Shown piece by piece: positions 2,527-33,347 of a stretch of 64,000 nt of DNA (positions are counted from its first letter, which is position 1; each line of letters begins with the position of its first letter). The stretch comes from Bordetella parapertussis. GTDB lineage: Bacteria; Pseudomonadota; Gammaproteobacteria; Burkholderiales; Burkholderiaceae_A. The translations under genes were made by a program, and so were the position numbers. The notes under the pieces were generated by a model. The model was not told the DNA's origin. It did no database searches and worked only from the letters and a program-made list of their open reading frames with translations. The stretch spans positions 186,001 through 250,000 of the forward strand of contig CAMDMC010000001.1 of assembly GCA_945901825.1 (NCBI GenBank). The letters are read 5' to 3'.

Positions 2527-2530
2527 AGGC

Positions 2531-8342: not shown

Positions 8343-8459
8343 ACGTTTTCATCAAAATATTTTACTTTCACATGGGTATCATGTCGATCAGAATTGCAGC
8401 AGTGATAGAAAAGATTTTAGTTTGTTTGTCTCGTGACACATAGAGGAAGAGGAGCTTTC

Positions 8460-9881
8460 ATGGCCGCAAAAACATACAGTGCTGGCGTAAAAGATTATCG
8501 CCAGACCTATTGGATGCCGGAGTACACACCCCTTGATACCGACATTCTTGCCGTATTCAAAATCACGCCTCAGCCTGGGGTTGATCGCGAAGAGGCCGCA
8601 GCAGCAGTGGCTGCCGAATCATCAACAGGAACCTGGACAACTGTCTGGACCGACCTGCTGACCGATCTCGACTACTACAAAGGCAGGGCCTATCGCATTG
8701 AAGACGTACCTGGCGACGATTCCTGCTACTACGCTTTTGTCGCCTACCCCATCGACCTTTTCGAAGAGGGTTCGGTTGTTAACGTCTTTACATCCCTGGT
8801 GGGTAACGTTTTTGGCTTTAAGGCGGTTCGTGCCTTACGCCTTGAGGATGTTCGTTTTCCCCTGGCCTACATCAAGACCTGCGGTGGCCCGCCCAACGGC
8901 ATTCAGGTTGAGCGCGATGTCATGAATAAGTACGGCAGGCCCATGCTGGGCTGCACGATTAAGCCCAAACTTGGTCTTTCGGCAAAGAATTATGGCCGCG
9001 CTGTTTATGAGTGCCTTCGTGGTGGGCTTGATTTCACGAAGGATGACGAGAACATTAACAGCCAGCCTTTCATGCGATGGAGGCAACGTTTTGACTTTGT
9101 CCAAGAAGCCACGCTCAAGGCTGAGGCCGAGACGGGCGAGCGCAAGGGCCATTACCTGAACGTAACTGCTCCGACACCCGAAGAGATGTATCGCAGGGCG
9201 GAGTACGCCAAGGAAATTGGTGCCCCCATCATCATGCACGACTACATCACAGGTGGCTTTTGTGCGAACACGGGCCTTGCCAACTGGTGTCGTGAGAATG
9301 GCATGCTGCTTCACATTCACCGTGCTATGCACGCCGTGATCGACCGAAACCCTCACCACGGAATTCATTTCCGCGTACTCACCAAGATCTTGCGTCTTTC
9401 GGGTGGAGACCACCTTCATACCGGAACGGTGGTTGGCAAGCTCGAGGGCGATCGTGCCTCAACCCTTGGATGGATCGACCTTCTGCGTGAGTCCTTCATT
9501 CCCGAGGACCGATCCCGCGGACTCTTCTTTGACCAAGACTGGGGTTCGATGCCAGGCGCTTTTGCTGTCGCCTCGGGTGGTATTCACGTCTGGCACATGC
9601 CTGCCCTTGTCACCATCTTTGGCGATGACTCGGTGCTTCAGTTCGGTGGCGGAACACTTGGCCACCCCTGGGGTAATGCGGCCGGGGCCTGTGCAAACCG
9701 CGTTGCGCTTGAGGCCTGTGTTCAGGCCCGTAACGAGGGTCGACAGCTTGAAAAAGAGGGCAAAGAAATTCTCACCGCTGCAGCTCAACATTCACCAGAA
9801 CTCAAAATCGCTATGGAGACCTGGAAAGAAATTAAATTTGAGTTTGACACTGTTGACAAGCTCGACATTTCTAACAAATAA
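8460..9881 (+). CDS. cbbL: Ribulose-1,5-bisphosphate carboxylase/oxygenase large subunit, form IA
   Basis: This is the catalytic subunit of RuBisCO, which carboxylates ribulose-1,5-bisphosphate in the Calvin cycle. The 473-residue length is exactly that expected for form I proteobacterial enzymes. Active-site features are present: T-I-K-P-K with K168 and K170, and [10 protein letters not shown] with the carbamylated lysine K194 and metal ligands D196 and E197. The later loop with GKLEGDR and the phosphate-binding [11 protein letters not shown] are also visible. The start is the ATG at 8460, preceded by the purine-rich AGAGGAAGAGGAG. The frame extends nine codons upstream without support. As first gene of the carboxysome operon, followed 17 bases later by cbbS, it belongs to the carboxysomal IA(c) type. 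Confidence 0.98.
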
Positions 9882-9898
9882 GTTGAAGGGAAACGAAC

Positions 9899-10225
9899 AT
9901 GACTGTTCAAGCCTATAAGTCGTCGCAGAAATACGAGACCTTTTCATACCTACCGCCTATGACGGCCGATCAGGTGAATCGCCAAATTGCCTACGCCATC
10001 AGCCAGGGCTGGAATCCCGCCGTTGAGCACACCGAGAAGGGAACGGCCTCGACCAGCAATTTTTGGTACATGTGGAAACTGCCCCTGTTCGGTGAGCAGT
10101 CTGTTGAGGCAGTACTTGGGGAGTTAAGCGCCTGCCACAAAGAGTTTCCTAATCATTTGGTGCGGTTTGTCGCTTATGACAACTACTCCCAGAGCCAAGG
10201 AACGTCGTTCGTCGTTTATCGATAG
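9899..10225 (+). CDS. cbbS: RuBisCO small subunit, form IA
   Basis: This is the 108-residue small subunit that caps the L8S8 enzyme. Recognisable features are the N-terminal [12 protein letters not shown], the segment [31 protein letters not shown] and the C-terminal [23 protein letters not shown]. Small subunits in carboxysomes also form part of the groove bound by CsoS2 N-terminal helices. The gene starts 17 bases after cbbL with AAGGGAAACGA upstream and is followed nine bases later by csoS2. Confidence 0.97.
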
Positions 10226-10234
10226 GGTGGTCCT

Positions 10235-11797
10235 ATGTCACTTTCCGAATCGCAAACCTACACAGTGACCTTATCGGGTCGAGAACTTGCACTGCGCCGC
10301 AGACAGGCCATGTCGAGCTTGGGCAAGTCGGCTATTCGAGGCGCCTCCCAGAAGAGTTCAACGGGGTCAGAGCATCGGAAAAAGTCGGCCCAACACGTCG
10401 ATCGGGCAGGGGGCCAAGACTGGCCTTTTAGTCCAATGCCTGCGAGCGCAAGTCAGGACCATGAAGCCTGCGGGCCTGAGTGTGGGTGCGATACAAAAAA
10501 ACCAGAGCTCCCTGCTGGCGCTTTGGGTAACCTTGTACGCGGTGACATCTCCTCCCGAACACTTGCTCGGATGCGCCGTGAGGCCGCTTCGAAGTCGGGT
10601 AAGGCGGGCCAACAAAGGGTGGCAAAGGCCGTTCAGGTTGCCCAACACCTTCCCGCCTCCCAGCTTTTTTCTGCCTTGTCCTCCGGGCCCAGTGGCCGTC
10701 AAGTGGCCATGCAACGCCGTCTGGAACAATCCCTTTTAGGCCGAGCCAGCCATAGGCATGCGTCCAGTTCTTCAGCCTATTCAGGCCAGTCCAGCGCCAC
10801 CATGCCGGCAGCCAAAGTCGAAATCGGTCATACCCTTTCGGGGCAGCTTGTCACAGGGCAGTTGCCCGACAACGATCCCAAGGTCACGGGTAATTTCCCC
10901 GGTCTATGCCAGCGGGTAACGGGAACCGAGTATTTAAGCGTGGAGCCTTTCAAGACCTTTTGTTCGCAAACGCCCAATCCAAAGCCCAGGAAGGTCAGTG
11001 TGATGTCCATTCGCCAAGACCTCTCGGTAACCGGTGCCGACGCCAGTAGCGAGAACCGAGTCACAGGTGATGCACGAAACTTTTCGGTTAGCGTTACTGG
11101 AACAGACCACATGTCCTTGGCAAAAACCAGTCCTCGTCAGTCGGCATTTCAGGCTCAATCGGTGACGTCAATCAGGCCTACCCATGCAACCATTCCTGCA
11201 TCGTTTGTAACTGGCGAGCGGCCTGGTGCGGGTGGGGAAGGAATTACGGGCGATGAGCGAGGAGCCTGCCAGCCCATCTCTGGAACGCCTTACCTTGGAG
11301 ACGACAACCGTCCTAGTTATTGTGGTCCTAGTGCTTCGGCCGGCGCCGCAATGCCAAAAGGGTCTCGTGAGCAGGCAGACAAGAAGGTTATTACAGGGTC
11401 GTCGTTTCAGACCGAACGGATCACTGGGGCACTCACCAAGGCCGATGGGGTCATTACAGGCACGCCTGAGTTTCGCCATGCCGATCCCGCGCCGCGCGCT
11501 GCGGCGGACACCTCCGCTCTTCAGGCTGCGCAGCGTGTAACGGGCGAGGGTAGCCAGGCGGGCAGACAGGTTACAGGTGATGCCTGGCATTCTCAGAGTC
11601 GCGTTACTGGAACAGAGGGTGGCTCCGCGATGGGTCGCAATCCCTCCATGCGTGGACAGTCGCGCGGACAAGGAATGAATGCAAGTCAGTTTAAGGGCGT
11701 CGAGCGACAGACAGCTCCACAAAGCCCAATGACGGGGTCGGCGGGCAACACGGGCCGTGGGGCTGTTGTTACAGTCTCGGGCGGTGCTCGAGGCTAA
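10235..11797 (+). CDS. csoS2: Carboxysome scaffold protein CsoS2 (compact form)
   Basis: This is the disordered scaffold that links RuBisCO to the shell in alpha-carboxysomes. The protein has 520 residues against roughly 700-900 in well-studied CsoS2 proteins. Three N-terminal RuBisCO-binding helices are visible (about residues 13-33, 106-126 and 153-173, each with an SGR/SSR-x-L/V-A-x-x-RR-type pattern). The middle region has only about two M repeats: one canonical with Cys225 and Cys243 around VTGN/VTGT motifs, and one without cysteines (~262-290). The C-terminal domain (~324-520) keeps a Cys345/Cys363 repeat, further ITG/VTG triplets and the conserved end MNASQFKGVE...VTVSGGARG. The region is low-complexity but in frame throughout. 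I see no basis to claim a programmed frameshift. Confidence 0.95.
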   Translation: MSLSESQTYTVTLSGRELALRRRQAMSSLGKSAIRGASQKSSTGSEHRKKSAQHVDRAGGQDWPFSPMPASASQDHEACGPECGCDTKKPELPAGALGNLVRGDISSRTLARMRREAASKSGKAGQQRVAKAVQVAQHLPASQLFSALSSGPSGRQVAMQRRLEQSLLGRASHRHASSSSAYSGQSSATMPAAKVEIGHTLSGQLVTGQLPDNDPKVTGNFPGLCQRVTGTEYLSVEPFKTFCSQTPNPKPRKVSVMSIRQDLSVTGADASSENRVTGDARNFSVSVTGTDHMSLAKTSPRQSAFQAQSVTSIRPTHATIPASFVTGERPGAGGEGITGDERGACQPISGTPYLGDDNRPSYCGPSASAGAAMPKGSREQADKKVITGSSFQTERITGALTKADGVITGTPEFRHADPAPRAAADTSALQAAQRVTGEGSQAGRQVTGDAWHSQSRVTGTEGGSAMGRNPSMRGQSRGQGMNASQFKGVERQTAPQSPMTGSAGNTGRGAVVTVSGGARG

Positions 11798-11826
11798 AGG
11801 GCTCATAGGGTCCCATAGGTCTAGCC

Positions 11827-13314
11827 ATGAGCCGCTCGATTAGCCATCATCCCGTCTTGCGTCGGCAGGCAGCCGTTGCGCAGAGGCGAGGTGAGCTTGC
11901 GAACCCCGCCTGCCAGATCGGGCCAGGCCAGACCTGTCGACATCCCTTGGTTGACGAGGCACTTAACACGGAGCTTCATCGCTACGAGACCACAATTAGC
12001 CAGCGCTTTTTGCTTATAGAATCGGCCCTGAAGAAAATCTCGGCCATTCAGCACGATGATTCGTTTGTTCGGAGTGCCCAGGACATTTGTCAGGCCATGC
12101 TTGGTTATCGTCTGCCCGAAGATAAACTTGCCAGTGCCTGGGTCAATGGTCTCGATATGCCCGACCTTCATGCCTACTGCGTTTTCCAAAGTCTGGTCTT
12201 GTCGGTTCAAAAGGCCAACGAGGATCGCGCGATATGGCTTGAGAAACTGCCGCTTAGCGCCCCCGTGCTTCGCGACATGGGCTACCACACTGTTAACATA
12301 AGCCCCTGTGCAGATGGTCGTCTGCAGGGTCTTCTGCCTTTTATCCTCCGTATCTCCCCCGCCCCTGAAATCTCAGTGAAGGCCTTTGCCGGCGCAAGAT
12401 TTGATATTGAAGATGACATTGCTGACTGGACCCAGGCCGAGCTGCAGCGGTTTGCAAATGAGCAAGGGTACGACGCGTCACTTAATTATTTAAAGTGTGT
12501 TGTCTACCACTACAGCAGTTCCGTCCCTTGTGGTGAGGGCTGTGCAGCTCATGGCAGTAACGATGACATGGCGGTCGACTGTGCAATTGAGGGGTTATCG
12601 AACCTTCAGTCGGCCATACGGAATTTGTATGGCCTGGGTGCCGAGCCCGATGGTCTGGTTCTTGGTGTCGATACCGATACCGATGCCCTTCGCGTTCATT
12701 TGCCGGATGGTTCCGGAACCATTCATGCTCACCAATTTTTAGACAGTGCCCAGCTTTTTGCAGATACGCTGCCCTTAAGTGGCGCCCAGGCCGAGCACGT
12801 GCTTATCGACCGTGTTCGGGCTGCCTGCTCAAACCCCGATGCCAATACTGTGGCCTTGGCAATAGGACTTCTTCGTGCCAATTTCTCACAGCTGCAGTAT
12901 GTCATCGAGCATCACAATGGCCGGTATACAGACGTGGGCCACGACGAAAAATTTATCTGTGCAGGTGAGGCTGTTGCCTCTCTGCACCTTCGTAATAAGT
13001 ACTACTTCGCTCACCTCTCCACGGTGGAAGAGGGGGCGGCCGACCTCGACGTTGGCATAAAGATCTTTACCTCGCTTAATTTGTCGCGAGGGCTCGCCAT
13101 CCCAATTCTGGTGCACTTCTTTTTTGATGCAAGGGTTTCAGGCGCCCGCCAGCGGGCCGAGGAGCGTTGCCATCGGGTTAAGCAGGCCATTCAGTCACGC
13201 TATCAGGCTCTGCATGAGCGCCATCAAATCAGATGCTTTCTTGCCGTGTCCGATATCGGAGGAACAGAAAACGTGACTCCCGTTCCATCAAGTTACTCGG
13301 CAGCTGTTCACTGA
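11827..13314 (+). CDS. csoSCA: Carboxysomal carbonic anhydrase CsoSCA (epsilon/beta-type)
   Basis: This is a 495-residue luminal carbonic anhydrase that dehydrates bicarbonate to CO2 for RuBisCO. The zinc and catalytic residues of the family are identifiable. The motif CADGR places Cys161, Asp163 and Arg165 (equivalents of the Cys-Asp-Arg set of the characterised enzyme). A second cluster AAHGS...VDC gives His242 and Cys252. The N-terminal ~45 residues are basic and cysteine-containing and match the RuBisCO-binding, disordered N-terminal peptide known for this protein (inference). The gene follows csoS2 by 29 bases without a clear Shine-Dalgarno site, so translation may be coupled or weak, consistent with low copy number. 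Confidence 0.95.
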   Translation: MSRSISHHPVLRRQAAVAQRRGELANPACQIGPGQTCRHPLVDEALNTELHRYETTISQRFLLIESALKKISAIQHDDSFVRSAQDICQAMLGYRLPEDKLASAWVNGLDMPDLHAYCVFQSLVLSVQKANEDRAIWLEKLPLSAPVLRDMGYHTVNISPCADGRLQGLLPFILRISPAPEISVKAFAGARFDIEDDIADWTQAELQRFANEQGYDASLNYLKCVVYHYSSSVPCGEGCAAHGSNDDMAVDCAIEGLSNLQSAIRNLYGLGAEPDGLVLGVDTDTDALRVHLPDGSGTIHAHQFLDSAQLFADTLPLSGAQAEHVLIDRVRAACSNPDANTVALAIGLLRANFSQLQYVIEHHNGRYTDVGHDEKFICAGEAVASLHLRNKYYFAHLSTVEEGAADLDVGIKIFTSLNLSRGLAIPILVHFFFDARVSGARQRAEERCHRVKQAIQSRYQALHERHQIRCFLAVSDIGGTENVTPVPSSYSAAVH

Positions 13315-13335
13315 CCGGCGGAGGCTCTTAGATTC

Positions 13336-13590
13336 ATGAAGATTATGCGGGTCGAAAAAACATTAGTGTCGACGAATCGAATTGATGCCTTTGGCCATCG
13401 GCCTTTATTGGTTGTCCAGGAGCGTGTGGGTGGCAGCTACAGCGTGGCTGTGGATGCGGTGGGTTGCGTGCCCGGCGATTGGGTGATTTGCGTAGGCTCT
13501 TCGGCGGCACGCGATGCTGCAGGCGCGAGGGATTTTCCTTCCGATCTTACGATCGTCGGGATCATCGACCGTTGGGAGGCACAGGCCTAA
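13336..13590 (+). CDS. csoS4A: Carboxysome vertex protein CsoS4A (BMC-P pentamer)
   Basis: This is an 84-residue CcmL/EutN-type pentameric shell protein that caps vertices of the carboxysome. The fold's signatures are present: MRVEKTLVSTNRIDAFGHRPLLVV at the start, a central VDAVGCVPGDWVICVGSSAARDA and the closing DLTIVGIIDRW. The ATG at 13336 is used, and an internal ATG at 13345 is possible. It begins 21 bases after csoSCA and is followed two bases later by csoS4B. The pair of paralogous vertex proteins is usual in alpha-carboxysome operons. Confidence 0.95.
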   Translation: MKIMRVEKTLVSTNRIDAFGHRPLLVVQERVGGSYSVAVDAVGCVPGDWVICVGSSAARDAAGARDFPSDLTIVGIIDRWEAQA

Positions 13591-13592
13591 CC

Positions 13593-13835
13593 ATGGAAAT
13601 TTACAAGGTTAGCCAAGAGCTTGTCTGCACCAGGCGTACGCCCGAGCTTGGGCATCATTCGCTTCGCGTGCTTGAGGCGGCCGATGGGAGCCTTTCTGTT
13701 GCAACCGATCCTGTCGGTGCGCCAGTGGGGAAATGGGTCTTTACAACCATTGGGACGGCGGCGCGCTTTGCCATGTCCGACCCAACTGTAGTAACCGATC
13801 TCACAATTTGTGGGCTTATTGATAACTGGGAGTAG
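13593..13835 (+). CDS. csoS4B: Carboxysome vertex protein CsoS4B (BMC-P pentamer)
   Basis: This is an 80-residue paralogue of CsoS4A that begins MEIYKVSQELVCTRR and ends DLTICGLIDNWE. It has the same central pattern (TDPVGAPVGKWVFTTIGTAARFA) as pentameric BMC-P proteins. The start at 13593 lies two bases after the csoS4A stop. The frame is open further upstream inside csoS4A, but the family N-terminus begins here. It is a minor shell component closing the icosahedral vertices. Confidence 0.94.
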   Translation: MEIYKVSQELVCTRRTPELGHHSLRVLEAADGSLSVATDPVGAPVGKWVFTTIGTAARFAMSDPTVVTDLTICGLIDNWE

Positions 13836-13866
13836 TTTTTTTCTTTTTTAAAAAAGGAGTAGTGAA

Positions 13867-14163
13867 ATGGCAAGTGTGACTGGTATTGCTTTAGGAATGA
13901 TCGAAACGCGTGGTCTTGTTCCCGCCATTGAGGCTGCTGATGCCATGACCAAGGCTGCCGAAGTTCGCCTGGTCGGCCGTCAGTTCGTTGGTGGTGGTTA
14001 TGTCACGGTCTTGGTTCGTGGCGAGACAGGCGCCGTGAATGCTGCAGTTCGTGCGGGTGCTGATGCCTGCGAGCGTGTGGGCGATGGACTTGTTGCCGCC
14101 CACATTATTGCTCGTGTGCATCAGGAAGTTGAAGGCATTCTTCCTTCAGCCCCAAGCGCCTAA
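13867..14163 (+). CDS. csoS1A: Carboxysome shell hexamer CsoS1 (copy 1)
   Basis: This is a 98-residue single-domain BMC-H protein, the main facet tile of the alpha-carboxysome shell. The sequence is typical CsoS1: [20 protein letters not shown], the pore-region segment around [17 protein letters not shown] and the final [20 protein letters not shown] strong AAGGAG site sits just upstream, preceded by a run of T followed by A. The letter suffix is nominal, since CsoS1A/B/C cannot be told apart by sequence alone. Confidence 0.96.
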
Positions 14164-14176
14164 TTGTTGAAAAAAT

Positions 14177-14196
14177 CGCGCCTGAGGTTTGGCGCG
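14177..14196 (+). other. Intercistronic stem-loop between the two csoS1 genes
   Basis: CGCGCC at 14177-14182 pairs with GGCGCG at 14191-14196 across an eight-base loop, immediately 5' of the AAAGGAGG ribosome-binding site of the second csoS1. There is no following T tract, so it is not an intrinsic terminator. A GC-rich stem here could protect or process the shell-protein mRNA; that role is inference. Confidence 0.45.
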
Positions 14197-14213
14197 CACA
14201 AAGGAGGTAGTAA

Positions 14214-14552
14214 ATGGCTACAGTATCCGGAGTTGCACTTGGCATGATAGAAACACGTGGTCTTGTTCCTGCTATTGAGGCCGCCGATGCAATGACGAAG
14301 TCTGCCGAGGTGCGTCTGGTCGGCCGCGAGTTTGTGGGCGGTGGGTATGTCACGGTGCTGGTGCGTGGCGAGACCGGCGCTGTTAACGCGGCGGTTCGCG
14401 CCGGAGCTGACGCCTGCGAACGTGTTGGTGATGGCCTTGTTGCTGCCCATATTATTGCGCGCGTGCACCAGGAAGTGGAAAGCATTCTTCCGTCGAAGCC
14501 GACTGCCGTGGGTGGTGGAAGAGATGGTGAACTCTCAACGATTCAGAGCTAG
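14214..14552 (+). CDS. csoS1B: Carboxysome shell hexamer CsoS1 (copy 2, with C-terminal extension)
   Basis: This is a 112-residue BMC-H protein almost identical to the preceding CsoS1 through residue ~95. It then has an extra tail of about 15-17 residues ([19 protein letters not shown]). The N-terminal core [19 protein letters not shown] and the pore segment are conserved. The ribosome-binding site AAAGGAGG is the strongest in the operon, in keeping with the need for thousands of shell subunits. CsoS1B-type proteins in other alpha-carboxysome operons also carry a short C-terminal extension, so the copy letter is a reasonable but unproven label. Confidence 0.96.
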
Positions 14553-14597
14553 GCAATCATGGGTCTCGCCTAAGGGCATCCCGTTCGGGGAGTAGAT

Positions 14598-14852
14598 ATG
14601 GCGGATACAGAGATTGAAGGCTGGGATTACAGAGCAAAGCCAAGCTCGCTGTCGCGACGCTTTGAGTTTGAGAGTTATGCTCAGACTCGAGACTTTCTCG
14701 ACCGTCTCGACCAGTTAAGTCAAGAGACTGGGCTCTATCCACACAGCACGAACTTTGGTACGAGTTATGTCAACCTAACGATCGACCTCGACACCGACTC
14801 CGAGGCCTTTCGAGCCTTCGCAGTGAAGGTTAGCCAGCTTTACCGTGCATGA
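14598..14852 (+). CDS. acRAF: alpha-carboxysome RuBisCO assembly factor (PCD-like)
   Basis: This is an 84-residue protein of the pterin-4a-carbinolamine-dehydratase-like fold. Members located in alpha-carboxysome operons are known as acRAF, a RuBisCO assembly chaperone. The visible pattern is SLSRRFEFESYAQTRDFLDRLDQLSQETGLYPHSTNFGTSYVNLTID. The spacing and the region SxRFEF...FL..L..LS are shared with this family. Its stop codon overlaps the mcdA start (ATGA), so acRAF and McdA are translationally coupled. A metabolic pterin dehydratase function is unlikely in this context, but this rests on location. Confidence 0.85.
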   Translation: MADTEIEGWDYRAKPSSLSRRFEFESYAQTRDFLDRLDQLSQETGLYPHSTNFGTSYVNLTIDLDTDSEAFRAFAVKVSQLYRA

Positions 14853-15484
14853 AGATTGTTGCGGTGGTTAATCAAAAGGGAGGCGCTGGAAAGACAACCT
14901 TGGCGATGAATCTGGCTGGGGGCTTAAACCGGCAAGGCCAGACTCTGGTTCTCGATCTTGATCCTCAGGGTTCTGCTGTGCAGTGGGCAAGCCAGGGCAG
15001 CACGCGATTTCCTGCTGTGGTTAAAAGGCCCATGCCTAAGTTCGATGGTGCGTCCATTCGAAAGACCTACAGCGAATTCGACTACGTCGTGATGGACTGT
15101 CCACCTTCTTTAGAAAGTGGTGCAACCCTGGCGGCATTGAGGGCTTGTCATCTGGCAATCATCCCCGTCCTGCCGTCGCCTGTTGATCTCTGGGCAAGTC
15201 TTCGCCTTCCATCGGAGCTTGAGCTTGCCAGGCAGATCAACCCAGGTCTTCGCAGTCTTATGGTAATTAATCAGTTAGAGCCAGCAAGTGCCTTGTCCTC
15301 GGCCATGCATGGAGCGCTTGAAGAGTTTGGACTACCAGCAGCAAAGACAGCCATTCGACGCCGTGCCATTTATCGCACTGCAGCCCTCGATGGCGTAACC
15401 GTGTATGAACTCGGTCGTCGCGCCGAGGCCGCAGTTAACGAATTTGAATCGCTACTCGAGGAGGTGGGCCATGAGCTCGCTTAA
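14849..15484 (+). CDS. mcdA: McdA: ParA-type ATPase for carboxysome positioning
   Basis: This is a 211-residue ParA/MinD-family ATPase with a deviant Walker A motif KGGAGKTT (residues 10-17, signature lysine K10). It also has a Walker A' segment (DLDPQGSAVQWA) and a Walker B-like VVMDCPPSLESGA. In alpha-carboxysome operons such proteins (McdA) bind the nucleoid and, with McdB, distribute carboxysomes along it. The gene overlaps the end of acRAF by four bases and its own 3' end is overlapped by mcdB. A general chromosome-partition ParA role is less likely because a larger ParB is absent and a small McdB-like protein follows. Confidence 0.93.
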   Translation: MKIVAVVNQKGGAGKTTLAMNLAGGLNRQGQTLVLDLDPQGSAVQWASQGSTRFPAVVKRPMPKFDGASIRKTYSEFDYVVMDCPPSLESGATLAALRACHLAIIPVLPSPVDLWASLRLPSELELARQINPGLRSLMVINQLEPASALSSAMHGALEEFGLPAAKTAIRRRAIYRTAALDGVTVYELGRRAEAAVNEFESLLEEVGHELA

Positions 15485-15710
15485 ATCAAAGCTTACAGCC
15501 AGCGTGAAGCAGGCAAAGGCATCGACCGGCAAGGCGACGCCACAAACCCAGACCGTCTCTTCAAAGGCACGAACCGAGGCCGCCTCTGCAAAGCCGCAGA
15601 AAAGGCCAGAGACGCCGAAGAGGGGGCCTTCGTCCATCAATTCCTCTGTCAACGCGAATGTCGTTGCGAGTCATCGTGAGCTCTTCCCGTCCCGGGTCTG
15701 GCCCGATTAA
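15471..15710 (+). CDS. mcdB: McdB: carboxysome positioning adaptor (alpha type)
   Basis: This is a 79-residue, low-complexity, basic protein, rich in Ser, Lys, Ala, Thr and Pro. It ends in a short ordered-looking tail containing FPSRVWPD. Alpha-type McdB proteins are small, disordered and carry a conserved tryptophan at or near the C-terminus, which fits here. The ATG at 15471 is preceded by GAGGAGGTGGG and overlaps the last 14 bases of mcdA. Identification rests on position directly after mcdA plus the terminal tryptophan, because sequence conservation in this family is low. Confidence 0.82.
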   Translation: MSSLKSKLTASVKQAKASTGKATPQTQTVSSKARTEAASAKPQKRPETPKRGPSSINSSVNANVVASHRELFPSRVWPD

Positions 15711-15720
15711 GGTCTGAGGC

Positions 15721-16641
15721 ATGAAGACCTACAGGCCTCGTCAGGCAGGGTTTGTTTCCCCAGAGGCGCCGAGCTCCACAAGGTATTCCTCTGGCCCTAC
15801 AGACGTAAGGCCAGCAAACGATCGCTCTGCCGTAAGCCATGCGTCGGAGCTGACTGAATACCTTATTCCAACAGAGCCCTACTACAGGCCTGTCTCCGAC
15901 GAGGTAAGCCTGTTTGAGGCGGCCTACTCGGTTCGCATGCCCATGATGCTTAAGGGCCCCACGGGTTGTGGAAAGACACGGTTTGTTGAGTACATGGCCT
16001 GGCGCTTAGGAAAGCCACTGATCACGGTGGCCTGTAACGAGGATATGACTGCCTCCGATCTTGTAGGCCGCTACCTGCTCGATGCGGACGGAACCCGTTG
16101 GCAGGATGGTCCGTTGGCACTTGCCGCGCGATACGGGGGCATCTGTTACCTTGATGAGGTGGTCGAGGCCCGCCAGGACACCACTGTTGTCATTCACCCC
16201 TTAACCGATGCACGACGTATCCTTCCGCTTGAGCGCAAGGGCGAGGTGATTGAAGCCCATCCCGATTTTCAGGTTGTTATTTCCTACAACCCGGGCTACC
16301 AGTCCTTAATGAAAGACTTAAAGCAGTCGACCAAGCAACGGTTTGGCGCGCTCGACTTCTCCTACCCTGAACACGAGGTTGAGGCCGAAATTGTGGCCCA
16401 TGAGTCGGGCGTCTCAACCCAGGATGCTGCAAACCTTGTTCATATTGCTGAGCGGGCACGGAACCTAAAGGGCCATGGTCTTGATGAGGGCATATCAACA
16501 CGCATGCTGATTTATGCAGGCTCGCTTATGGCCGCTGGGGTGCCGGCGCTTTCGGCCTGTCGCGTTGCCTTGGTTAGGCCCATTACCGATGACCCTGATA
16601 TGCGGGATGCACTTGATGCCGCCGTAAGTACCTATTTCTAG
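15721..16641 (+). CDS. cbbQ: CbbQ: MoxR-type AAA+ RuBisCO activase subunit
   Basis: This is a 306-residue AAA+ ATPase of the MoxR/CbbQ group. With CbbO it remodels inhibited RuBisCO. Walker A is GPTGCGKT at residues 79-86, and Walker B is CYLDEV around residue 140. The C-terminal half has the CbbQ pattern VISYNPGYQSLMKDLKQSTKQRF. About 43 residues precede the usual CbbQ beginning (EYLIPTEPYYRPVSDEV). No in-frame ATG, GTG or TTG exists between the ATG at 15721 and that point, so the extension seems genuine. The gene sits 11 bases after mcdB and six bases before cbbO. Confidence 0.95.
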   Translation: MKTYRPRQAGFVSPEAPSSTRYSSGPTDVRPANDRSAVSHASELTEYLIPTEPYYRPVSDEVSLFEAAYSVRMPMMLKGPTGCGKTRFVEYMAWRLGKPLITVACNEDMTASDLVGRYLLDADGTRWQDGPLALAARYGGICYLDEVVEARQDTTVVIHPLTDARRILPLERKGEVIEAHPDFQVVISYNPGYQSLMKDLKQSTKQRFGALDFSYPEHEVEAEIVAHESGVSTQDAANLVHIAERARNLKGHGLDEGISTRMLIYAGSLMAAGVPALSACRVALVRPITDDPDMRDALDAAVSTYF

Positions 16642-16646
16642 TCCCT

Positions 16647-18992
16647 ATGGCTCAAGCCTTATCCGATTTTCTTAGCCCGGACGACGACTGCTCTGAATCG
16701 TTACGGCTTGCGCTTGAGGAACAATGGGTAAACCTTCCACGTGTCTTTAGCTCACGCGGCATTGATAACTACCTAAAGGGCTGCACGGCCCTCGACCAGC
16801 TCGGGCGTTCCGAGGAACTTCCACTTGCCTTTGCGGCTTGCATGCCCGAGGTCGCACGTGCCATCGGTGAGGACGTGTTACCTGACATTGTCAATTTTTT
16901 GTTGAGTATGGCCTCTAAGACCTCGGGTCAGGTCTTAGCAGCCATCGTTCATGCAGCCCCAATTGTTGCCCGTCGACTCGGCGACCCCGAGTTGTTTCGA
17001 CAGTTTTTACAGGTCTTGGCCAATATGCTTGCCCAGGTGCCAAGGGGCGTGCGACCCATGCTGGAGCAGTTGGACACCCTGCTTTCGCAGCTTACGCTCG
17101 GAGGGCTTCGGCGTTGGGCCTTATGGGGTGCCCAGGCCTACAAAAATGATCTTGAAGGCCAGGTTCTCTATTTCTCTTTGCAAAGCGAAGATGCCCGGGC
17201 CATGCTGCAGGCTGAGCGAAAGGGAACCCTTTTTGTCGATGTTCAAAGGCGCCTGTTGATTTATTTAAGGGCCATCTGGGGCCGTGATTTTTTCTTGCGA
17301 CCAACCTCCGGAGACTACGAACACCGCGAGGGACTTAAGCCTTACATTGATCGGTTTGTTATTCACATTCCCGATGCCTTTGATGACTGGTCCGACGCAG
17401 GTGAGAAAAAGACCGTTTCTGGGCTTGATGTTTATCGCGCGGTTGTGAACCATTGTGCCGCGCATCTTCAGTTCGGGCGTGAGCCTCTTACGGACGAGGG
17501 GCTGACCCCCCTGCAGCGCCATCTTGTTGAGTGCATTGAAGATGCCCGTGTTGAGTACTTGGCAGGCCAGGCCTTCCCCAATATGCGCGATTCCTGGGCA
17601 GTTTTTCACGCCGAGTCTCTTGGTGAATCGTCGCCGTTACGAATAGCCGATCTTCTAAGGCGATTGGCCCTGCGTTTGACGAACCCTAAGGGCCGCGATA
17701 GTCATGAATGGGTGGAGTACGCCGCCCATTGTTTCTTTAGCCATCCCGACCTGACACAAGGCCTTGCAAGCGTGTCCATTGCCCTTGCCATTGATGCGAA
17801 GCTAGGCCAGTTAGAGCTTCCTTCTTTTGACAGTCGTCTTGATAGTTTTACTTTGTTTTATCGCGACGACAACCGTGTTATTTGGCAGCCTGATAGCCAA
17901 GACGAGCAGGATGCACTTGCCTTGACCTGGCAGCAGAAGCAGGTTCGGAAAAAGGTAAGCATTATGGAAATGGTGAACGAGGTGAATAACGAGTTTGCCG
18001 GTGATGATGCGCAGGAAATCTGGGTCCTTCCCACCGAGTTCTTTCTTGACCAAGAAGGGGTTTCCATCAACTCGCTCGAGGGCCGTGAGCCTGTCTCAAG
18101 CCCGTTTTATTACGACGAATGGGATTATCAAATACAGCTCGATCGTCCAGCCTGGGTTACCCTTTACGAAAGGGCTGCACCTCGTGGAGATGCAGCAGTT
18201 ATCGATGCCTTGCTTGCCGAGCACAAGCCTGTTGTGTCTCGGCTTAAGTACCTTATTGAGTCGATGGTTCCTCAGGGTCTCAAACGGATACGTCGCCAGG
18301 AAGAGGGCGATGAAATTGACCTTAATGCGGCAGTCAGCAGCTTTATTGACCTGCGCATGGGGTATCAGCCTGACCCTCGAATCATGACTCGCTACAAGCG
18401 GTCTGAGCGTGATGTCTGTGTTCTGGTTCTGCTCGATCTCTCGGAATCCTCAAACGACACCGTGCGGGGGCAGGACTTCACCGTTATTGAGCTTACCCGG
18501 GCGGCTACCGTTCTTATGGCAGACGCCCTTAGTCGTGTGGGCGATGCCTTTGCTATACACGGGTTTTGCTCAAATGGGCGTGATGATGTTCATTACTATC
18601 GAATGAAGAACTTCGATGAGCCTTATGAGAAAGAGGCGAAGGCAAGGCTTGCAGGGCTCTCGGGGTCTTATTCAACACGAATGGGTGCAGCCATTCGGCA
18701 TGCATCAAGCCTGCTCGCTCAACGATCCGAGCGAAAAAAGTTAATTTTTGTTGTCACTGATGGCGAGCCTGCCGATAACGATGTCCGTGATCCCCAATAC
18801 CTAAGGGCCGATACCAAGAAGGCGGTCGAGCAGGCCGGGCGTTTGGGTGTTAACTGTTATGCGCTTTCGCTTGATCCCTACGCCGATCAATACGTTTCAA
18901 GTATTTTTGGTGCTGGCCGTTTTACAGTTCTTGACCATGTTGAGCGCCTGCCCGAAAAGCTCCCTATGCTCTACCTTGGGTTGACACACTAG
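16647..18992 (+). CDS. cbbO: CbbO: VWA-domain RuBisCO activase adaptor
   Basis: This is a 781-residue partner of CbbQ. The N-terminal part is a helical repeat region that binds the AAA+ hexamer. The C-terminal ~190 residues are a von Willebrand factor A domain with an intact metal-ion-dependent adhesion site ([11 protein letters not shown] near residue 595) and a later ITDGEP-like strand (here [11 protein letters not shown]). In CbbQO activases the MIDAS domain contacts RuBisCO. Length and domain order match the family. It begins six bases after cbbQ, indicating co-translation. Confidence 0.95.
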
Positions 18993-18999
18993 GTTCGTC

Positions 19000-19641
19000 A
19001 TGACGATTAGCCTTCGAACCTTTATTCTCATCGACTCGTTGCAGCCTCAGCTTGCGTCCTATCTGGGAACCTCCTCGCAGGGCTTTCTTCCTGTTCCCGG
19101 CGATGCCTGCCTCTGGATTGAGGTGGCACCCGGAATGGCGGTGCATCGACTCTCCGACATTGCCTTGAAGCGAACCAATGTTCATATGGGTGAGCAGGTG
19201 GTGGAGCGGTCGTTTGGGTCGATGGAAATTCATTACCGCAATCAGAGCGAGGTGCAGGAGGCTGGTCGCGTTATTCTGGAGCAGCTTGCAAGCTCACCAG
19301 AGGACCGCATGGGCTGCTCAATTGAATGGGCTGAGGTTATATGTGCAGTGACCCCCGATCATGCAACCCTTATCAACCGGCAGATGCGTCGTGGATCGAT
19401 GCTCTTGCCTGGTAAGAGTATGTTTATTATGGAAACAGAGCCTGCCGGTTACATTGTCTATGCAGCCAATGAGGCAGAAAAGGCCGCTAACGTTAGCCTT
19501 GTTGACCTCAAGCCTTTTGGTAGCTTCGGGCGCCTGACCATGATGGGAACGGAGGCCGAAGCGGCAGCAGCTGCTGCGGCCGCTCAGGCAGCGATTGAGG
19601 CCCTAAACCGCCATGCGCGCCCAATCGGGTATAAGGGATAA
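19000..19641 (+). CDS. csoS1D: CsoS1D: tandem-BMC trimeric shell protein
   Basis: This is a 213-residue protein made of two BMC-like halves (residues ~1-100 and ~105-205). The second half ends in an alanine-rich helix ([18 protein letters not shown]) before a short tail. CsoS1D pseudohexamers stack and form large gated pores for bigger metabolites such as RuBP. This copy is somewhat shorter than the cyanobacterial protein, which carries an N-terminal extension. It starts seven bases after cbbO and ends two bases before the protease gene, so all three are in one transcript. Confidence 0.9.
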
Positions 19642-19643
19642 CG

Positions 19644-20471
19644 ATGGATATCAATTCGCCTACCAAGCGACTGTTATTTAATACCGTTCGGGTCGACACC
19701 GAGCTCGACGATGGCAGTCGTGGCTCGGGAACCGCTTTTATTGTGAGTCATCGCCACGGCAGTAAGGCCACAGCCTTCGTGGTCACGAACCGCCACCTTG
19801 TTGAAGGCGTGCGTCGAGGTGGCCTCGTTTTTACCGTCGGCCAGCAAGGCAAGCCTCTTATTGGCCAGAGGTTTCAGCTCGATATCGATGAATTCCCCCA
19901 GGCCTGGTTCTTGCATCCCGACCCATCCATCGACCTTGCCGTTATTCCTCTTGCACCCCTTGAGCAGGCTGCTAATGAGCGAGGGGTGGATATTTATTAC
20001 CAGCTGATCGATACCAGCCTCGTTCCCGAGGCCACGGATGAGCTTGCCTTTGATGCACTTGAGGAGGTTCTTTTTGTTGGCTATCCAAGTGGCGTCTGGG
20101 ATCAGGTGAACCTCATGCCCATTCTTCGTCGCGGAACGACAGCGACGCCACCACAAATTAATTTTGAAGGCCGACGAGAGTTTCTTATTGATGCTGCTGT
20201 CTATCCTGGTTCAAGTGGCAGTCCGGTTTTTTTCTGCGCCTCCGATGGCCTGGCAAGTCGCATCACAAGTGACACGAAGTTCTTTTTTGCGGGCGTCGTT
20301 GCGGCCGTTTTCTTCCGTCAAGAGCAACAGCAACTGGTACCTGCCCCGGTACCTGCAAACAATGGGCATGCGTCGGTGATGGGCTCCGAGATGATTGACC
20401 TGGGACTTGTTATTAAGTCGTCCCAGGTTGTTCATTTAATCAACGCCTACCTAAGCACCTGGAAGGTCTAG
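19644..20471 (+). CDS. Cytosolic trypsin-like serine protease encoded in the carboxysome operon
   Basis: This is a 275-residue chymotrypsin/trypsin-fold peptidase (Trypsin_2-like). A catalytic triad can be placed: His51 in TNRHLVEG, Asp97 in PSIDLAVIPL and Ser191 in YPGSSGSPVF. The oxyanion-loop sequence G-S-S-G-S-P is intact, so the enzyme should be active. There is no signal peptide, membrane anchor or PDZ domain, so it is neither a DegP type nor periplasmic. It begins two bases after csoS1D and is followed nine bases later by an unknown gene leading into sbtA. I know of no described carboxysome function for such a protease. A processing or quality-control role on CsoS2, RuBisCO or shell proteins is a hypothesis. 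Confidence 0.85.
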   Translation: MDINSPTKRLLFNTVRVDTELDDGSRGSGTAFIVSHRHGSKATAFVVTNRHLVEGVRRGGLVFTVGQQGKPLIGQRFQLDIDEFPQAWFLHPDPSIDLAVIPLAPLEQAANERGVDIYYQLIDTSLVPEATDELAFDALEEVLFVGYPSGVWDQVNLMPILRRGTTATPPQINFEGRREFLIDAAVYPGSSGSPVFFCASDGLASRITSDTKFFFAGVVAAVFFRQEQQQLVPAPVPANNGHASVMGSEMIDLGLVIKSSQVVHLINAYLSTWKV

Positions 20472-20480
20472 CCCAAGTCT

Positions 20481-20777
20481 ATGAATACACGTTATGCAGG
20501 TTTTTTTAATGATTCACACGGCATAACCCAGCTTGGTCGAATTGTGCTTGACGCATGGGCCTTTGGAATTCTCCCGCGCGAGGAGGATTGCGAGCAGTGG
20601 GACCTCGGGCGCATGCAAAACCTGATGCAGCAGGTGCAAGAGTTCTGGGATGCTCATGGCGGTCTGCCTAGCCGCTTGCCCGCTGAGCTTAGTAAGGAGC
20701 ATCAGGCAACTTACAGCTGGGCGATGGATCGTGCCCGAACATTAGGATGGTCCTCCGCCTTAGGCGAGGACGACTAA
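20481..20777 (+). CDS. Unknown 98-residue protein between protease and sbtA
   Basis: This is a small acidic soluble protein with many aromatic residues (DSHGITQLGRIVLDAWAFGILP, WDLGRMQNLMQQVQEFWDAHGGLP, YSWAMDRARTLGWSS). It has no membrane segment, signal peptide or recognised motif. The clear codon structure and its fit between the protease (nine bases before) and sbtA (24 bases after) argue that it is a real gene of the CO2-concentrating operon. I do not recognise the family. It could be a regulatory or adaptor protein for the protease or for bicarbonate uptake, but this is only guilt by association. Confidence 0.75.
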   Translation: MNTRYAGFFNDSHGITQLGRIVLDAWAFGILPREEDCEQWDLGRMQNLMQQVQEFWDAHGGLPSRLPAELSKEHQATYSWAMDRARTLGWSSALGEDD

Positions 20778-20801
20778 GCCTTCACCGGCTGGGAGTGTTT
20801 T

Positions 20802-21746
20802 ATGGTTTTTGACCCTATCGTTTTATTTTTCCTACTTGGCGTAATTGCTGGAATCGTTAAGTCCGATCTGAAAATGCCCTCGGCTCTTTACGAGGCCTTA
20901 TCGATATTTCTTCTGCTTGCCATCGGCCTTAAGGGAGGCGTAGAGCTCTCAAAGTACAACATCCTCGAGCTACTCCCCAGCACTTTTATTGTGATTCTTA
21001 TTGGTGTCCTTATTCCTTTAATTGCCTTTCCCATTCTTAAGTTCGTTGGCAAATTGAATCATTTCGATTCCGCCTCAATCGCGGCACACTATGGATCGGT
21101 AAGTGTGGTCACCTACTCGGTCGCACTGGCTGCTCTTGCTGAAAGGGGCATGACTCACGAGGGTTACATTGTTGTTTACCTTGTTTTGCTTGAGATGCCG
21201 GCCATTATTGTGGGTGTTGCTCTGGCGCGTATGGCTCCCGACGCCACCAAAAAGGCAGCAGGCTGGGGTAAGTTAATGCACGAGGTTTTCTCAGGCAAAA
21301 GCATTCTTTTGCTAACTGGGGGTCTTGTGATTGGTTGGATTGCCGGTGAGAAAGGGTTTGCCCCCATTGAACCGATGTTCGGCGGGCTTTTTAAGGGCGC
21401 ACTTGCTTTGTTCTTGCTCGAGATGGGGCTCGTCGCTGCCTCACGGGTGGCGGCGTTTCGCTCCTACGGCATGTTTTTGGTGGTCTTTGCCATGGTTATG
21501 CCAATGATCTCTGCAGCAATTGGCATCTTTACCGGCTTCATGCTGTCACTGTCTCCGGGCGGAACTGCGCTGCTTGCCACTCTTTATGCCAGCGCCTCCT
21601 ACATTGCAGCGCCTGCGGCTATGCGAATTGCGGTTCCTAAAGCCAACCCATCGCTATCGATCGGCGCATCTTTAGGGGTAACCTTCCCATTCAATCTTTT
21701 TGTTGGGATACCCTTATACTTTGGAGCAGTCGAGCGATTCTTCTAG
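20802..21746 (+). CDS. sbtA: SbtA-type sodium-dependent bicarbonate transporter
   Basis: This is a 314-residue polytopic membrane protein with about ten helices, starting VFDPIVLFFLLGVIAGIVKSDLKMP. It has the SbtA-type sequence ALSIFLLLAIGLKGGVEL and the second-half repeat LFLLEMGLVAASR. The SbtA family imports bicarbonate with Na+ in autotrophs with a CO2-concentrating mechanism. It is shorter than cyanobacterial SbtA, mainly in the central cytoplasmic loop. Position after the carboxysome genes and before sbtB supports bicarbonate as substrate. The gene is preceded by TGGGAGTGTTTT as a possible ribosome-binding site. Confidence 0.93.
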   Translation: MVFDPIVLFFLLGVIAGIVKSDLKMPSALYEALSIFLLLAIGLKGGVELSKYNILELLPSTFIVILIGVLIPLIAFPILKFVGKLNHFDSASIAAHYGSVSVVTYSVALAALAERGMTHEGYIVVYLVLLEMPAIIVGVALARMAPDATKKAAGWGKLMHEVFSGKSILLLTGGLVIGWIAGEKGFAPIEPMFGGLFKGALALFLLEMGLVAASRVAAFRSYGMFLVVFAMVMPMISAAIGIFTGFMLSLSPGGTALLATLYASASYIAAPAAMRIAVPKANPSLSIGASLGVTFPFNLFVGIPLYFGAVERFF

Positions 21747-21753
21747 GGATTCC

Positions 21754-22044
21754 ATGCAAGTCAAACCGTTTAAGCTGGTGACCGTCTTTTGCGAGGCCAT
21801 TTTAGAGTCTCTGGTTATAACAGAGCTCGATGAATTAGGAATTGTGGGCTATACGGTAAGCGACTGCCGCGGTCGAGGAACCCATGGCGTGCGCAGCGGT
21901 TCTTGGAGATTGAGCTCCAACATTCGAATTGAGGTTATGTGCGATGAAGAAGTCGCTGAAAAGCTCGCCTCTGCGCTCAGTCAAAAATACGACAAAGACT
22001 ACGGGTTGCTTATTGTTGCAAGCAATGTCGATGTTTTGAATTAA
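21754..22044 (+). CDS. sbtB: SbtB-type PII-like regulator of bicarbonate uptake
   Basis: This is a 96-residue PII-superfamily protein starting MQVKPFKLVTVFCEAILESLV. It has a ferredoxin-like beta-alpha-beta repeat and a T-loop region YTVSDCRGRGTHGVRSG. SbtB proteins bind SbtA trimers and sense adenine nucleotides. The C-terminus ends VASNVDVLN and lacks the cysteine-containing redox R-loop known from some cyanobacterial SbtB proteins. The ATG at 21754 lies eight bases after sbtA. The frame is open further upstream inside sbtA but without family support. Confidence 0.88.
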   Translation: MQVKPFKLVTVFCEAILESLVITELDELGIVGYTVSDCRGRGTHGVRSGSWRLSSNIRIEVMCDEEVAEKLASALSQKYDKDYGLLIVASNVDVLN

Positions 22045-30347: not shown

Positions 30348-31691
30348 TTGAGTAAAACCATTGCCATGTCTGGGCGTATCGTAAAGGCGCCTGAAAACTT
30401 CCTGGTTAGGGAGGATGCAAAATCCCCCGAGACCATGCGCCGAAAGTTCTTGGCGGCAACGGCTGCTGGTGCAGGGCTTGGACTTGCTGCTGCAGCAAAG
30501 GCCGCTTCAAACCCTGTTTCTGGTCAGGGTGATCCCAACATTCTTGAGCTTCCCATGCACACAACGGGTCTTGGTATGCCGGTTGCTGCCAATGGGTATG
30601 GTGTTCCTTCTCAGTATGAGAAGGGTCTGCAACGTCGCGAAAGCCCCGGGCTCACTCGTGTCTCAGCAGCTTCCGTTGCTTTCACACCGCTCCAAGGGAC
30701 TTTTGGCATCATCACCCCCAGTGGCCTGCATTTTGAGCGTCACCACCAGGGCTGGTGGGACATTGACCCCTCCAAGCATCGCCTCATGATCAACGGCATG
30801 GTCAAGACCCCCAAGGTTTACACCATGGATGACATCATGCGACTGCCCTCGGTCTCGCGCATCCATTTCATCGAGTGCGGCGCAAATACTGCCATGGAGT
30901 GGGGTAATGTCGCGGTGCCAACGGTGCAGTACACCCATGGCATGGTCTCTTGTTCCGAGTTTACTGGCGTTCCTTTGTCTGTTCTTCTTGAGCATGCAGG
31001 CTTTGACAAGAAGAAGGGTAAGTACATTCTTGCAGAAGGGGCCGACGGCTCTGGCATGACCCGCACCATTCCTCTTGATAGGGCGCTTGATGACGTCATC
31101 GTTGCCTACGGCATGAATGGCGAGATGCTGCGGCCTGAGAATGGCTACCCCCTCAGGCTGGTCGTTCCGGGTGTTCAGGGTGTGTCGTGGGTGAAGTGGC
31201 TGCGTCGTATTGAGGTGGGCGATATGAAATGGGCTACGAAAGACGAGGCCATTCACTATGTTGACCTTATGCCCGACGGTACTCATCGTCAGTACAGTGG
31301 CATGCAAGAGGCCAAATCGGTCATCACCTCGCCCTCGGGTGGTCAAATATTGCTCGACAAGGGTTTTCATAATATTTCAGGTCTTGCCTGGTCGGGTCGC
31401 GGCAAAATTAAACGTGTCGATGTCTCCGTTGACGGTGGAAAAAACTGGCGCACTGCGCGTCTTGAGGGGCCCGTTCTTTCGAAGGCCTTCACGCGCTTTA
31501 ATATTGACTGGTCGTGGAACGGCAAGAATGCCTTCCTGCAGTCGCGTTGCATCGATGACTCGGGCTATGTGCAGCCAACGGTCCATCAACTGCGTGAGGT
31601 TCGGGGTACACGTTCCATCTATCACAACAACATGATTCAGACCTGGCGTATTGCCGAGTCGGGGGAGGTAAGCAATGTCCAAGTGGGTTAA
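30348..31691 (+). CDS. soxC: SoxC: sulfane dehydrogenase molybdoprotein subunit
   Basis: This is a 447-residue molybdenum-cofactor protein of the sulfite oxidase family. With SoxD it oxidises the sulfane sulfur bound to SoxY in the periplasm. A twin-arginine signal is visible (M-R-R-K-F-L-A-A-T-A at residues ~30-39). The molybdenum-ligating cysteine lies in RIHFIECGANTAMEW (Cys177). The start is a TTG at 30348 preceded by GGGAG with six-base spacing, and the first ATG six codons later lacks such a site. The 3' end overlaps soxD by 17 bases. The presence of SoxCD implies complete oxidation of thiosulfate without obligatory sulfur globules. Confidence 0.95.
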   Translation: MSKTIAMSGRIVKAPENFLVREDAKSPETMRRKFLAATAAGAGLGLAAAAKAASNPVSGQGDPNILELPMHTTGLGMPVAANGYGVPSQYEKGLQRRESPGLTRVSAASVAFTPLQGTFGIITPSGLHFERHHQGWWDIDPSKHRLMINGMVKTPKVYTMDDIMRLPSVSRIHFIECGANTAMEWGNVAVPTVQYTHGMVSCSEFTGVPLSVLLEHAGFDKKKGKYILAEGADGSGMTRTIPLDRALDDVIVAYGMNGEMLRPENGYPLRLVVPGVQGVSWVKWLRRIEVGDMKWATKDEAIHYVDLMPDGTHRQYSGMQEAKSVITSPSGGQILLDKGFHNISGLAWSGRGKIKRVDVSVDGGKNWRTARLEGPVLSKAFTRFNIDWSWNGKNAFLQSRCIDDSGYVQPTVHQLREVRGTRSIYHNNMIQTWRIAESGEVSNVQVG

Positions 31692-32412: not shown

Positions 32413-32425
32413 TTCTCCTCTTATT

Positions 32426-32475
32426 GTCTTCGAGAGGTGGGTTATCGAAGACGTCATGCAGGTCACCCACATCTC
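32426..32475 (+). other. Two mutually exclusive stem-loops between soxD and soxY
   Basis: GTCTTCGA (32426-32433) pairs perfectly with TCGAAGAC (32445-32452). Alternatively, bases 32432-32442 pair with 32465-32475 over ten base pairs with one mismatch, which would break the first stem. No T tract follows. The AAAGGAG site of soxY just downstream stays free in both forms. The structure may tune soxY mRNA stability; this is inference by hand pairing. Confidence 0.4.
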
Positions 32476-32493
32476 ATTTGAAAGGAGCTTTAA

Positions 32494-33340: not shown

Positions 33341-33347
33341 TAGCGGT

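What the first reader, a model, noticed from the sequence alone, without database searches (positions are those of the whole stretch)
19644..20471. Active-looking trypsin-like protease embedded in an alpha-carboxysome operon
A cytosolic S1-type protease with complete His51/Asp97/Ser191 triad sits two bases after csoS1D and nine bases before a small unknown gene and sbtA. It has no signal peptide, PDZ domain or membrane anchor. The alpha-carboxysome gene sets I know (RuBisCO, CsoS2, CsoSCA, CsoS4, CsoS1, CsoS1D, CbbQO, McdAB, acRAF, sometimes bacterioferritin) include no such enzyme. It might process CsoS2 or other assembly proteins, or degrade misassembled RuBisCO.
Basis: partly seen in the sequence, partly recalled or inferred. 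Interest (0 to 1): 0.75.

Follow-up and report, generated by a model that had tools for sequence, protein, structure and literature searches.

The report
Carboxysome-linked serine protease of one lineage
A gene for an intact-looking cytosolic serine protease sits in a carbon-fixation (carboxysome) gene cluster and is inherited with one particular lineage of carboxysomes across distantly related bacteria, which suggests an unrecognised protein-cutting step in the building or upkeep of these organelles.

Summary
ORF 19644-20471 (+) encodes a 275-aa Trypsin_2 protease, 2 bases after csoS1D and 9 before a 98-aa gene and sbtA. The predicted fold is the HtrA/Deg protease domain without PDZ domain, signal peptide or membrane segment. 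The triad is intact in all 77 locus rows and 120 listed database proteins aligned (some rows are the same record twice). Of 70 related loci, 54 hold carboxysome shell or assembly genes, all on its strand; 12 of the other 16 genomes carry CsoSCA. Among 159 sampled carboxysome genomes on a CsoSCA tree, one branch holds 31 genomes plus the window; 30 of the 31 have the protease, against 0 of 128 others. A named-record tree places Nitrobacter, Nitrosomonas, Thiobacillus, Thiomonas and Thioalkalivibrio together, so protease and carboxysome probably travelled together. Ten paper searches showed no report of it, with most listed papers unopened. Most likely it is a dedicated protease of this carboxysome lineage that trims or removes a core carboxysome protein; the substrate is unknown. 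Bicarbonate transporters are common neighbours too (49 of 70 loci). CsoS1D is not obligatory.

The parts
19644..20471 (+). Serine endopeptidase, PDZ-less HtrA/Deg-type (S1C) protease domain; H51, D97, S191
19000..19641 (+). csoS1D, pseudohexameric shell protein, immediately upstream
   Evidence: BMC domain, NCBIfam CcmP model below its cut-off; immediately upstream (<200 bases) in 29 of 70 loci
20481..20777 (+). sm98: 98-aa three-helix protein of unknown function
   Evidence: immediately downstream of the protease in 42 of 70 loci; no Pfam/NCBIfam hit, no fold match at E <= 0.001; in 49 of 68 CsoSCA genomes and 63 of 301 others, so not protease-specific
20802..21746 (+). sbtA, Na+-dependent bicarbonate transporter
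   Evidence: Pfam Sbt_1 E 2e-117; within 1 kb downstream in 25 of 70 loci
21700..22044 (+). PII-like protein (sbtB-like); ORF as listed from a TTG overlapping sbtA, true start not determined
   Evidence: Pfam P-II
16647..18992 (+). cbbO, VWA subunit of RuBisCO activase
   Evidence: VWA domain; within 10 kb upstream on the same strand in 53 of 70 loci
15721..16641 (+). cbbQ, AAA+ subunit of RuBisCO activase
   Evidence: CbbQ_C, AAA_5
8433..15710 (+). Core alpha-carboxysome genes: cbbL, cbbS, csoS2, csoSCA, csoS4A, csoS4B, csoS1 x2, acRAF, mcdA and an mcdB-position ORF
   Evidence: ORFs, partly named by eye; homologues in related loci in the same order; acRAF (just under its cut-off) and mcdA by Pfam; csoSCA used for the trees

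Best explanation
It is a dedicated, PDZ-less, HtrA/Deg-fold serine endopeptidase belonging to one lineage of proteobacterial alpha-carboxysomes. It is encoded at the tail of the carboxysome operon, stays in the cytosol or carboxysome lumen, and cuts a core carboxysome protein during assembly or turnover. By elimination the likeliest substrates are CsoS2, RuBisCO (presented by CbbQO) or misassembled shell and cargo. Shown: the gene, the intact triad, the fold prediction, the position in the locus, and co-inheritance with one carboxysome lineage. Inferred: co-transcription, catalytic activity, location and substrate. The S1 pocket probably accepts small aliphatic residues: counting back from Ser191 puts Ala185 and Val186 where trypsin has Asp189 and Ser190 (recalled numbering), much as in DegP (recalled).
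For: Linkage: 54 of 70 loci carry shell/assembly genes in the held DNA, with 236 of 236 such best hits on the protease's strand; 12 of the other 16 genomes carry CsoSCA. Specificity: in 369 class-level genomes, orthologues (E < 1e-130) occur in 4, all with CsoSCA, and in 0 of 301 without it. In 117 genomes of one family, 25 of 27 protease genomes have CsoSCA. Lineage: 30 of 31 sampled genomes on one CsoSCA branch (SH-aLRT 100) have it, 0 of 128 others; 26 of the 31 come from the one family sampled densely, 5 from elsewhere. Within one genus G627 has it and G411 does not, and their CsoSCA lie on and off the branch. Active site intact in 77 of 77 locus rows and 120 of 120 database rows (some duplicates). 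Conserved: mean pairwise distance 0.27, like CbbO (0.27), less than CsoSCA (0.41) and SbtA (0.40), more than CsoS1D (0.22), CbbQ (0.19) and CsoS4A (0.19); its distances track acRAF (0.80), CsoSCA (0.78), McdA (0.77) and CsoS1D (0.75) (gene sets differ in size).
Against: No substrate, cleavage or localisation evidence exists. 128 of 128 sampled carboxysome genomes outside the branch do without it, so it is not needed for an alpha-carboxysome as such. Distance correlations are uneven: sm98 0.67, CbbQ 0.62, PII-like 0.61, SbtA 0.55, and the shell protein CsoS4A only 0.54, CbbO 0.46. A Ci transporter (SbtA, SulP or DabA) lies within 5 kb in 49 of 70 loci, almost as often as shell genes occur in the held DNA. 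Three loci (L005, L030, L052) show no shell gene in held DNA and no CsoSCA in their genomes; L005 and L052 match the draft genomes G687 and G770, 89% and 87% complete; the completeness of the third is not shown. G762 lies on the branch without a detected protease (84% complete). The fold is shared with generic stress proteases.
Confidence: 0.54

Rival explanations
1. It controls inorganic-carbon uptake: it cleaves or turns over bicarbonate transporters or their regulators (SbtA and its PII-like partner, SulP family, DabAB) when CO2 is plentiful.
For: A Ci-transporter homologue lies within 5 kb in 49 of 70 loci: SbtA 33, SulP 25, DabA 4, overlapping. sbtA is within 1 kb downstream in 25 of 70. 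An LCIB_C-type carbonic-anhydrase homologue lies within 5 kb in 19 loci (Pfam). DabA lies about 5 kb upstream in L011.
Against: The neighbouring transporter type changes from locus to locus. 21 of 70 loci have none within 5 kb; 11 of these have at least 5 kb of DNA on both sides, including Nitrobacter Nb-311A, Nitrosomonas Nm51 and Thiomonas bhubaneswarensis. Distribution follows CsoSCA type. The distance correlation with SbtA is modest, 0.55.
Confidence: 0.17
2. It is a working partner of the CbbQO activase: the AAA+/VWA motor remodels RuBisCO and the protease removes damaged or wrongly placed subunits or activase.
For: cbbO within 10 kb upstream on the same strand in 53 of 70 loci; less than 200 bases upstream in 11, as in G107 where csoS1D is absent.
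Against: Many carboxysome loci with cbbQ and cbbO lack the protease. The distance correlation with CbbO is the lowest of the set, 0.46.
Confidence: 0.14
3. It is a general cytosolic stress protease that was captured by an ancestral carboxysome locus and travels with it without a carboxysome-specific role.
For: Cousins at 30-45% identity lie in unrelated contexts; the fold is that of housekeeping HtrA proteases.
Against: Retention in 30 of 31 sampled lineage members, conservation and an invariant active site argue for a role tied to this system.
Confidence: 0.12
4. It is catalytically dead and acts as a binding or regulatory protein.
For: None found.
Against: Triad and the residues checked around it are conserved in the 197 orthologue rows examined (some rows duplicate each other).
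Confidence: 0.03

Closest known systems
HtrA/Deg (S1C) serine proteases: Deg2, Deg9, DegQ, DegS, HhoA
   Different: No PDZ domain, signal peptide or membrane anchor; 22% identity or less in the rows shown; PGSSGSP where HhoA has PGNSGGP; a loop at 224-251 of low model confidence flanked by strongly conserved residues.
Accessory genes of chemoautotroph carboxysome loci (acRAF, CbbQO, ParA/McdA, bacterioferritin) as listed in PMC4207490 and PMC12918739
   Same: Accessory gene co-inherited with alpha-carboxysome core genes, downstream of them on the same strand.
   Different: No protease is named in the section read of PMC4207490; term searches for protease, peptidase and the like in the main texts of PMC12918739, PMC9164163 and PMC8217296 gave none. 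It is confined to one carboxysome lineage.
Peptidase in glycyl-radical-enzyme microcompartment loci (mentioned in PMC4207490)
   Same: A peptidase encoded in a microcompartment locus, role called unclear by the authors (passage).
   Different: A different microcompartment type; its peptidase family was not checked here.

Membership tests
Trypsin_2 / S1 chymotrypsin-fold serine protease | Pfam PF13365 match above curated cut-off | tested here: met
   45.1 bits against 27.6
Trypsin_2 / S1 chymotrypsin-fold serine protease | Intact His-Asp-Ser triad | tested here: met
   H51, D97, S191 in the window and in all 197 orthologue rows aligned
Trypsin_2 / S1 chymotrypsin-fold serine protease | Proteolytic activity | not testable with these tools
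   needs a biochemical assay
HtrA/Deg family | HtrA-type protease domain fold | tested here: met
   top Foldseek and VIA-align matches are DegP/DegQ/Deg2/DegS; a predicted model, pLDDT 80
HtrA/Deg family | C-terminal PDZ domain(s) | tested here: not met
   no PDZ hit in Pfam; the protein ends with the helix 259-273 after the last strand of the protease domain
HtrA/Deg family | Curated HhoA/HhoB/HtrA model (NF041521) cut-off | tested here: not met
   12.7 bits against 450
Accessory component of the alpha-carboxysome locus | Conserved position with core cso genes across genera | tested here: met
   54 of 70 loci with shell genes in held DNA, 236 of 236 best hits on the same strand
Accessory component of the alpha-carboxysome locus | Present in alpha-carboxysome genomes generally | tested here: not met
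   0 of 128 carboxysome genomes outside one CsoSCA branch
Accessory component of the alpha-carboxysome locus | Physical presence in purified carboxysomes | not testable with these tools
   needs mass spectrometry

The most novel reading that the evidence does not exclude
One lineage of alpha-carboxysomes, spread by horizontal transfer across Alpha-, Beta- and Gammaproteobacteria, has its own maturation protease: a limited cut in a scaffold or cargo protein controls carboxysome assembly, closure or disassembly, as prohead proteases do for phage capsids (recalled).
Probability: 0.2. Interest if true: 0.87.

Novelty: new variant of a known kind. Interest (0 to 1): 0.63.

Why it matters
Proteolysis has no stated part in alpha-carboxysome biology in the passages examined here; protein turnover and assembly control of these organelles are open questions. 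A dedicated protease that marks a whole carboxysome lineage gives a directly testable handle, and it may matter when carboxysomes of Nitrosomonas, Nitrobacter, Thiobacillus, Thiomonas or Thioalkalivibrio are rebuilt in other hosts. The usual model organism, Halothiobacillus neapolitanus, is not among the 70 records (it was not tested by name); if it truly lacks the gene, that would explain why it has been missed.

Tried and rejected
CsoS2 processing in place of ribosomal frameshifting: csoS2 genes of 30 protease-positive and 39 negative loci were scanned for in-frame slippery heptamers; no clean difference (5 of 30 against 11 of 39 with the listed types). Inconclusive, and many positive csoS2 genes are cut by the locus edge.

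sm98 as the protease's private partner: rejected. It occurs in 63 of 301 class genomes without CsoSCA; in G107, G264 and G359 it lies away from the protease. Its model (pLDDT 86) has no PDB match at E <= 0.001.

CsoS1D as obligatory partner: rejected by G107 (one contig), which has the protease but no CsoS1D match at E <= 1e-10. Nine of the ten other protease-positive genomes... are not needed for this point; ten of eleven protease-positive genomes asked do have CsoS1D.

Trees: one search used preselected positives (33 positive, 39 negative rows) and is superseded for counting by the sampled set. One search dropped 16 rows that my script had cut wrongly and kept two more wrong ones (L132, L133); it is superseded. 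In one search, rows L083_G494 and L111_G159 are still wrongly extracted (branch 4.1); both genomes are protease-negative and lay among the negatives. Three rows are short (L013, L148, L188). One CsoSCA genome of 160 (G270) was not fetched. Trees are quick searches (LG+G4) with SH-aLRT only, no bootstrap, midpoint root.

Contrary cases: G762 lies on the branch but shows no protease (84% complete); its fetched contig carries the cso genes through csoS1D but no protease. G687 and G770 have the protease but no CsoSCA (89% and 87% complete); they appear to be the genomes of L005 and L052. Cousins (E 1e-63 to 1e-33) occur in three carboxysome genomes of the class sample, G022, G278 and G192; the fetched stretches show no carboxysome gene beside them, and that of G192 aligns Ala at the Ser position (L080). 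Ten genomes of the class sample have cousin-level matches; eight were fetched (L074-L081), G146 and G149 were not.

Overlap: some sampled genomes are the same records as some of the 70 loci (for example L082 and L001, L124 and L018, L126 and L021), so the locus counts and the genome counts are not independent.

Papers: ten searches; searches returned nothing. One search found 33 papers with carboxysome, protease and csoS2, 30 listed; only two of these were opened (PMC4633670, PMC9040747). No title or abstract start seen reports this protease. Read: one section and passages of PMC4207490; passages of PMC9164163, PMC4633670, PMC5248467, PMC12918739, PMC9040747; a term search without hits in PMC8217296. 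All other papers were seen as search listings only. Supplements and papers outside the held library were not seen.

Full report

Linkage. A scan of GTDB species genomes returned 70 loci, 60-100% identical, in records labelled Thiobacillus, Nitrosomonas, Thiomonas, Hydrogenophaga, Nitrobacter, Thioalkalivibrio and others. In the held DNA, 54 of 70 have shell or assembly genes, and all 236 such best hits are on the protease's strand. csoS1D is immediately upstream in 29, cbbO immediately upstream in 11, sm98 immediately downstream in 42 and sbtA within 1 kb downstream in 25. Of the 16 loci without shell genes in held DNA, 12 genomes carry CsoSCA elsewhere. Of the remaining four (L005, L019, L030, L052), L019 has mcdA, cbbQ and cbbO beside the protease.

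Specificity. In the same 369 class-level genomes CsoSCA occurs in 68 and the orthologue (E < 1e-130) in 4, all among the 68; ten further genomes have weaker matches, E 1e-89 to 1e-10. The neighbourhoods of eight of these ten cousins (L074-L081; 30-45% identity) were fetched and show none of the window's carboxysome genes. A phylum-level sample of 294 genomes gave one orthologue, G001; the next match was E 7e-40. In 117 genomes of the family of G627, chosen because G627 has the protease and its family mate G411 does not, CsoSCA occurs in 64 and the protease in 27, with 25 in both (Fisher p 4e-6). In the order-level sample, 4 of 32 CsoSCA genomes have it (the other 268 genomes were not searched for it).

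Lineage. CsoSCA from 159 of the 160 carboxysome genomes in the three samples, plus the window, was put on one tree (DNA; tree). One branch with SH-aLRT 100 holds 31 of these genomes and the window. Of the 31, 30 have the protease; the exception, G762, is 84% complete. None of the 128 genomes outside has the orthologue (Fisher p 3e-32 with the window counted). These genomes are not independent: 26 of the 31 belong to the one family sampled densely. A second CsoSCA copy of G764, which also has an on-branch copy, lies outside. An earlier tree with named records places Nitrobacter, Nitrosomonas, Thiobacillus, Thiomonas, Hydrogenophaga and Thioalkalivibrio on the same branch. Within one genus, G627 (protease) and G411 (none) have CsoSCA on and off the branch. 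The simplest reading is that protease and carboxysome form one transferred unit. The tree is a quick search without bootstrap, with two wrongly extracted rows, and the root is a midpoint, so 'branch' is safer than 'clade'.

Which partner. CsoS1D is dispensable: G107, a one-contig genome, has cbbO-protease-sbtA and no CsoS1D match. sm98 is a wider gene (49 of 68 CsoSCA genomes, 63 of 301 others). Ci transporters are frequent but changeable neighbours: SbtA, SulP or DabA lies within 5 kb in 49 of 70 loci. 21 loci have none, 11 of them with at least 5 kb of DNA on both sides. Pairwise distances of the protease track acRAF, CsoSCA, McdA and CsoS1D (0.75-0.80) better than SbtA (0.55), but also poorly track CsoS4A (0.54) and CbbO (0.46). 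This is weak evidence, since all genes share history and the gene sets differ. I put the substrate among core carboxysome proteins, CsoS2 or RuBisCO first, without direct evidence.

Literature. Ten full-text searches of the held library showed no title or abstract start that reports a protease in alpha-carboxysome loci. The locus surveys and reviews whose passages were examined do not mention one. Most listed papers were not opened, and supplements and papers outside the library were not seen, so the claim is limited to these searches.

Verdict. Its biochemical role is open and directly testable.

Noticed in passing
   Followed up: partly
L027:8688-9833 (-) and relatives in 18-19 of 70 loci: A conserved gene of about 381 aa, antisense to and near the protease, matches Pfam LCIB_C_CA, the limiting-CO2-inducible carbonic-anhydrase family.
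   Followed up: partly
window 20481-20777: sm98 is an unnamed 98-aa three-helix family without Pfam or fold match, enriched in carboxysome genomes (49 of 68 against 63 of 301 others).
   Followed up: partly
window 8433-22044 against relatives of G001: The four genomes of the same genus and the four others of the same family as the nearest genome G001 in the order sample have no CsoSCA match, which suggests that this carboxysome was acquired horizontally.
   Followed up: no
window 662-4638 (-) and 30348-36783 (+): By reading of the ORFs, an Mrp-type Na+/H+ antiporter cluster lies upstream and sox-like sulfur-oxidation genes downstream of the carboxysome locus; named by eye, not searched.
   Followed up: no
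L129 and L188 (genome G764): One draft genome (92% complete, 6% contamination) carries CsoSCA copies on and off the branch; the on-branch copy shares a contig with the protease, the other lies on a 5.4-kb contig.
   Followed up: partly
L080 (genome G192): A cousin in a carboxysome genome aligns Ala in place of the catalytic Ser; alignment not checked further.
   Followed up: no
L074 (genome G200): The nearest cousin (45% identity) sits beside an AAA+/peptidase M41 protein, a protein kinase with WD40 repeats and, further on, a kinase with an FHA domain.
   Followed up: no
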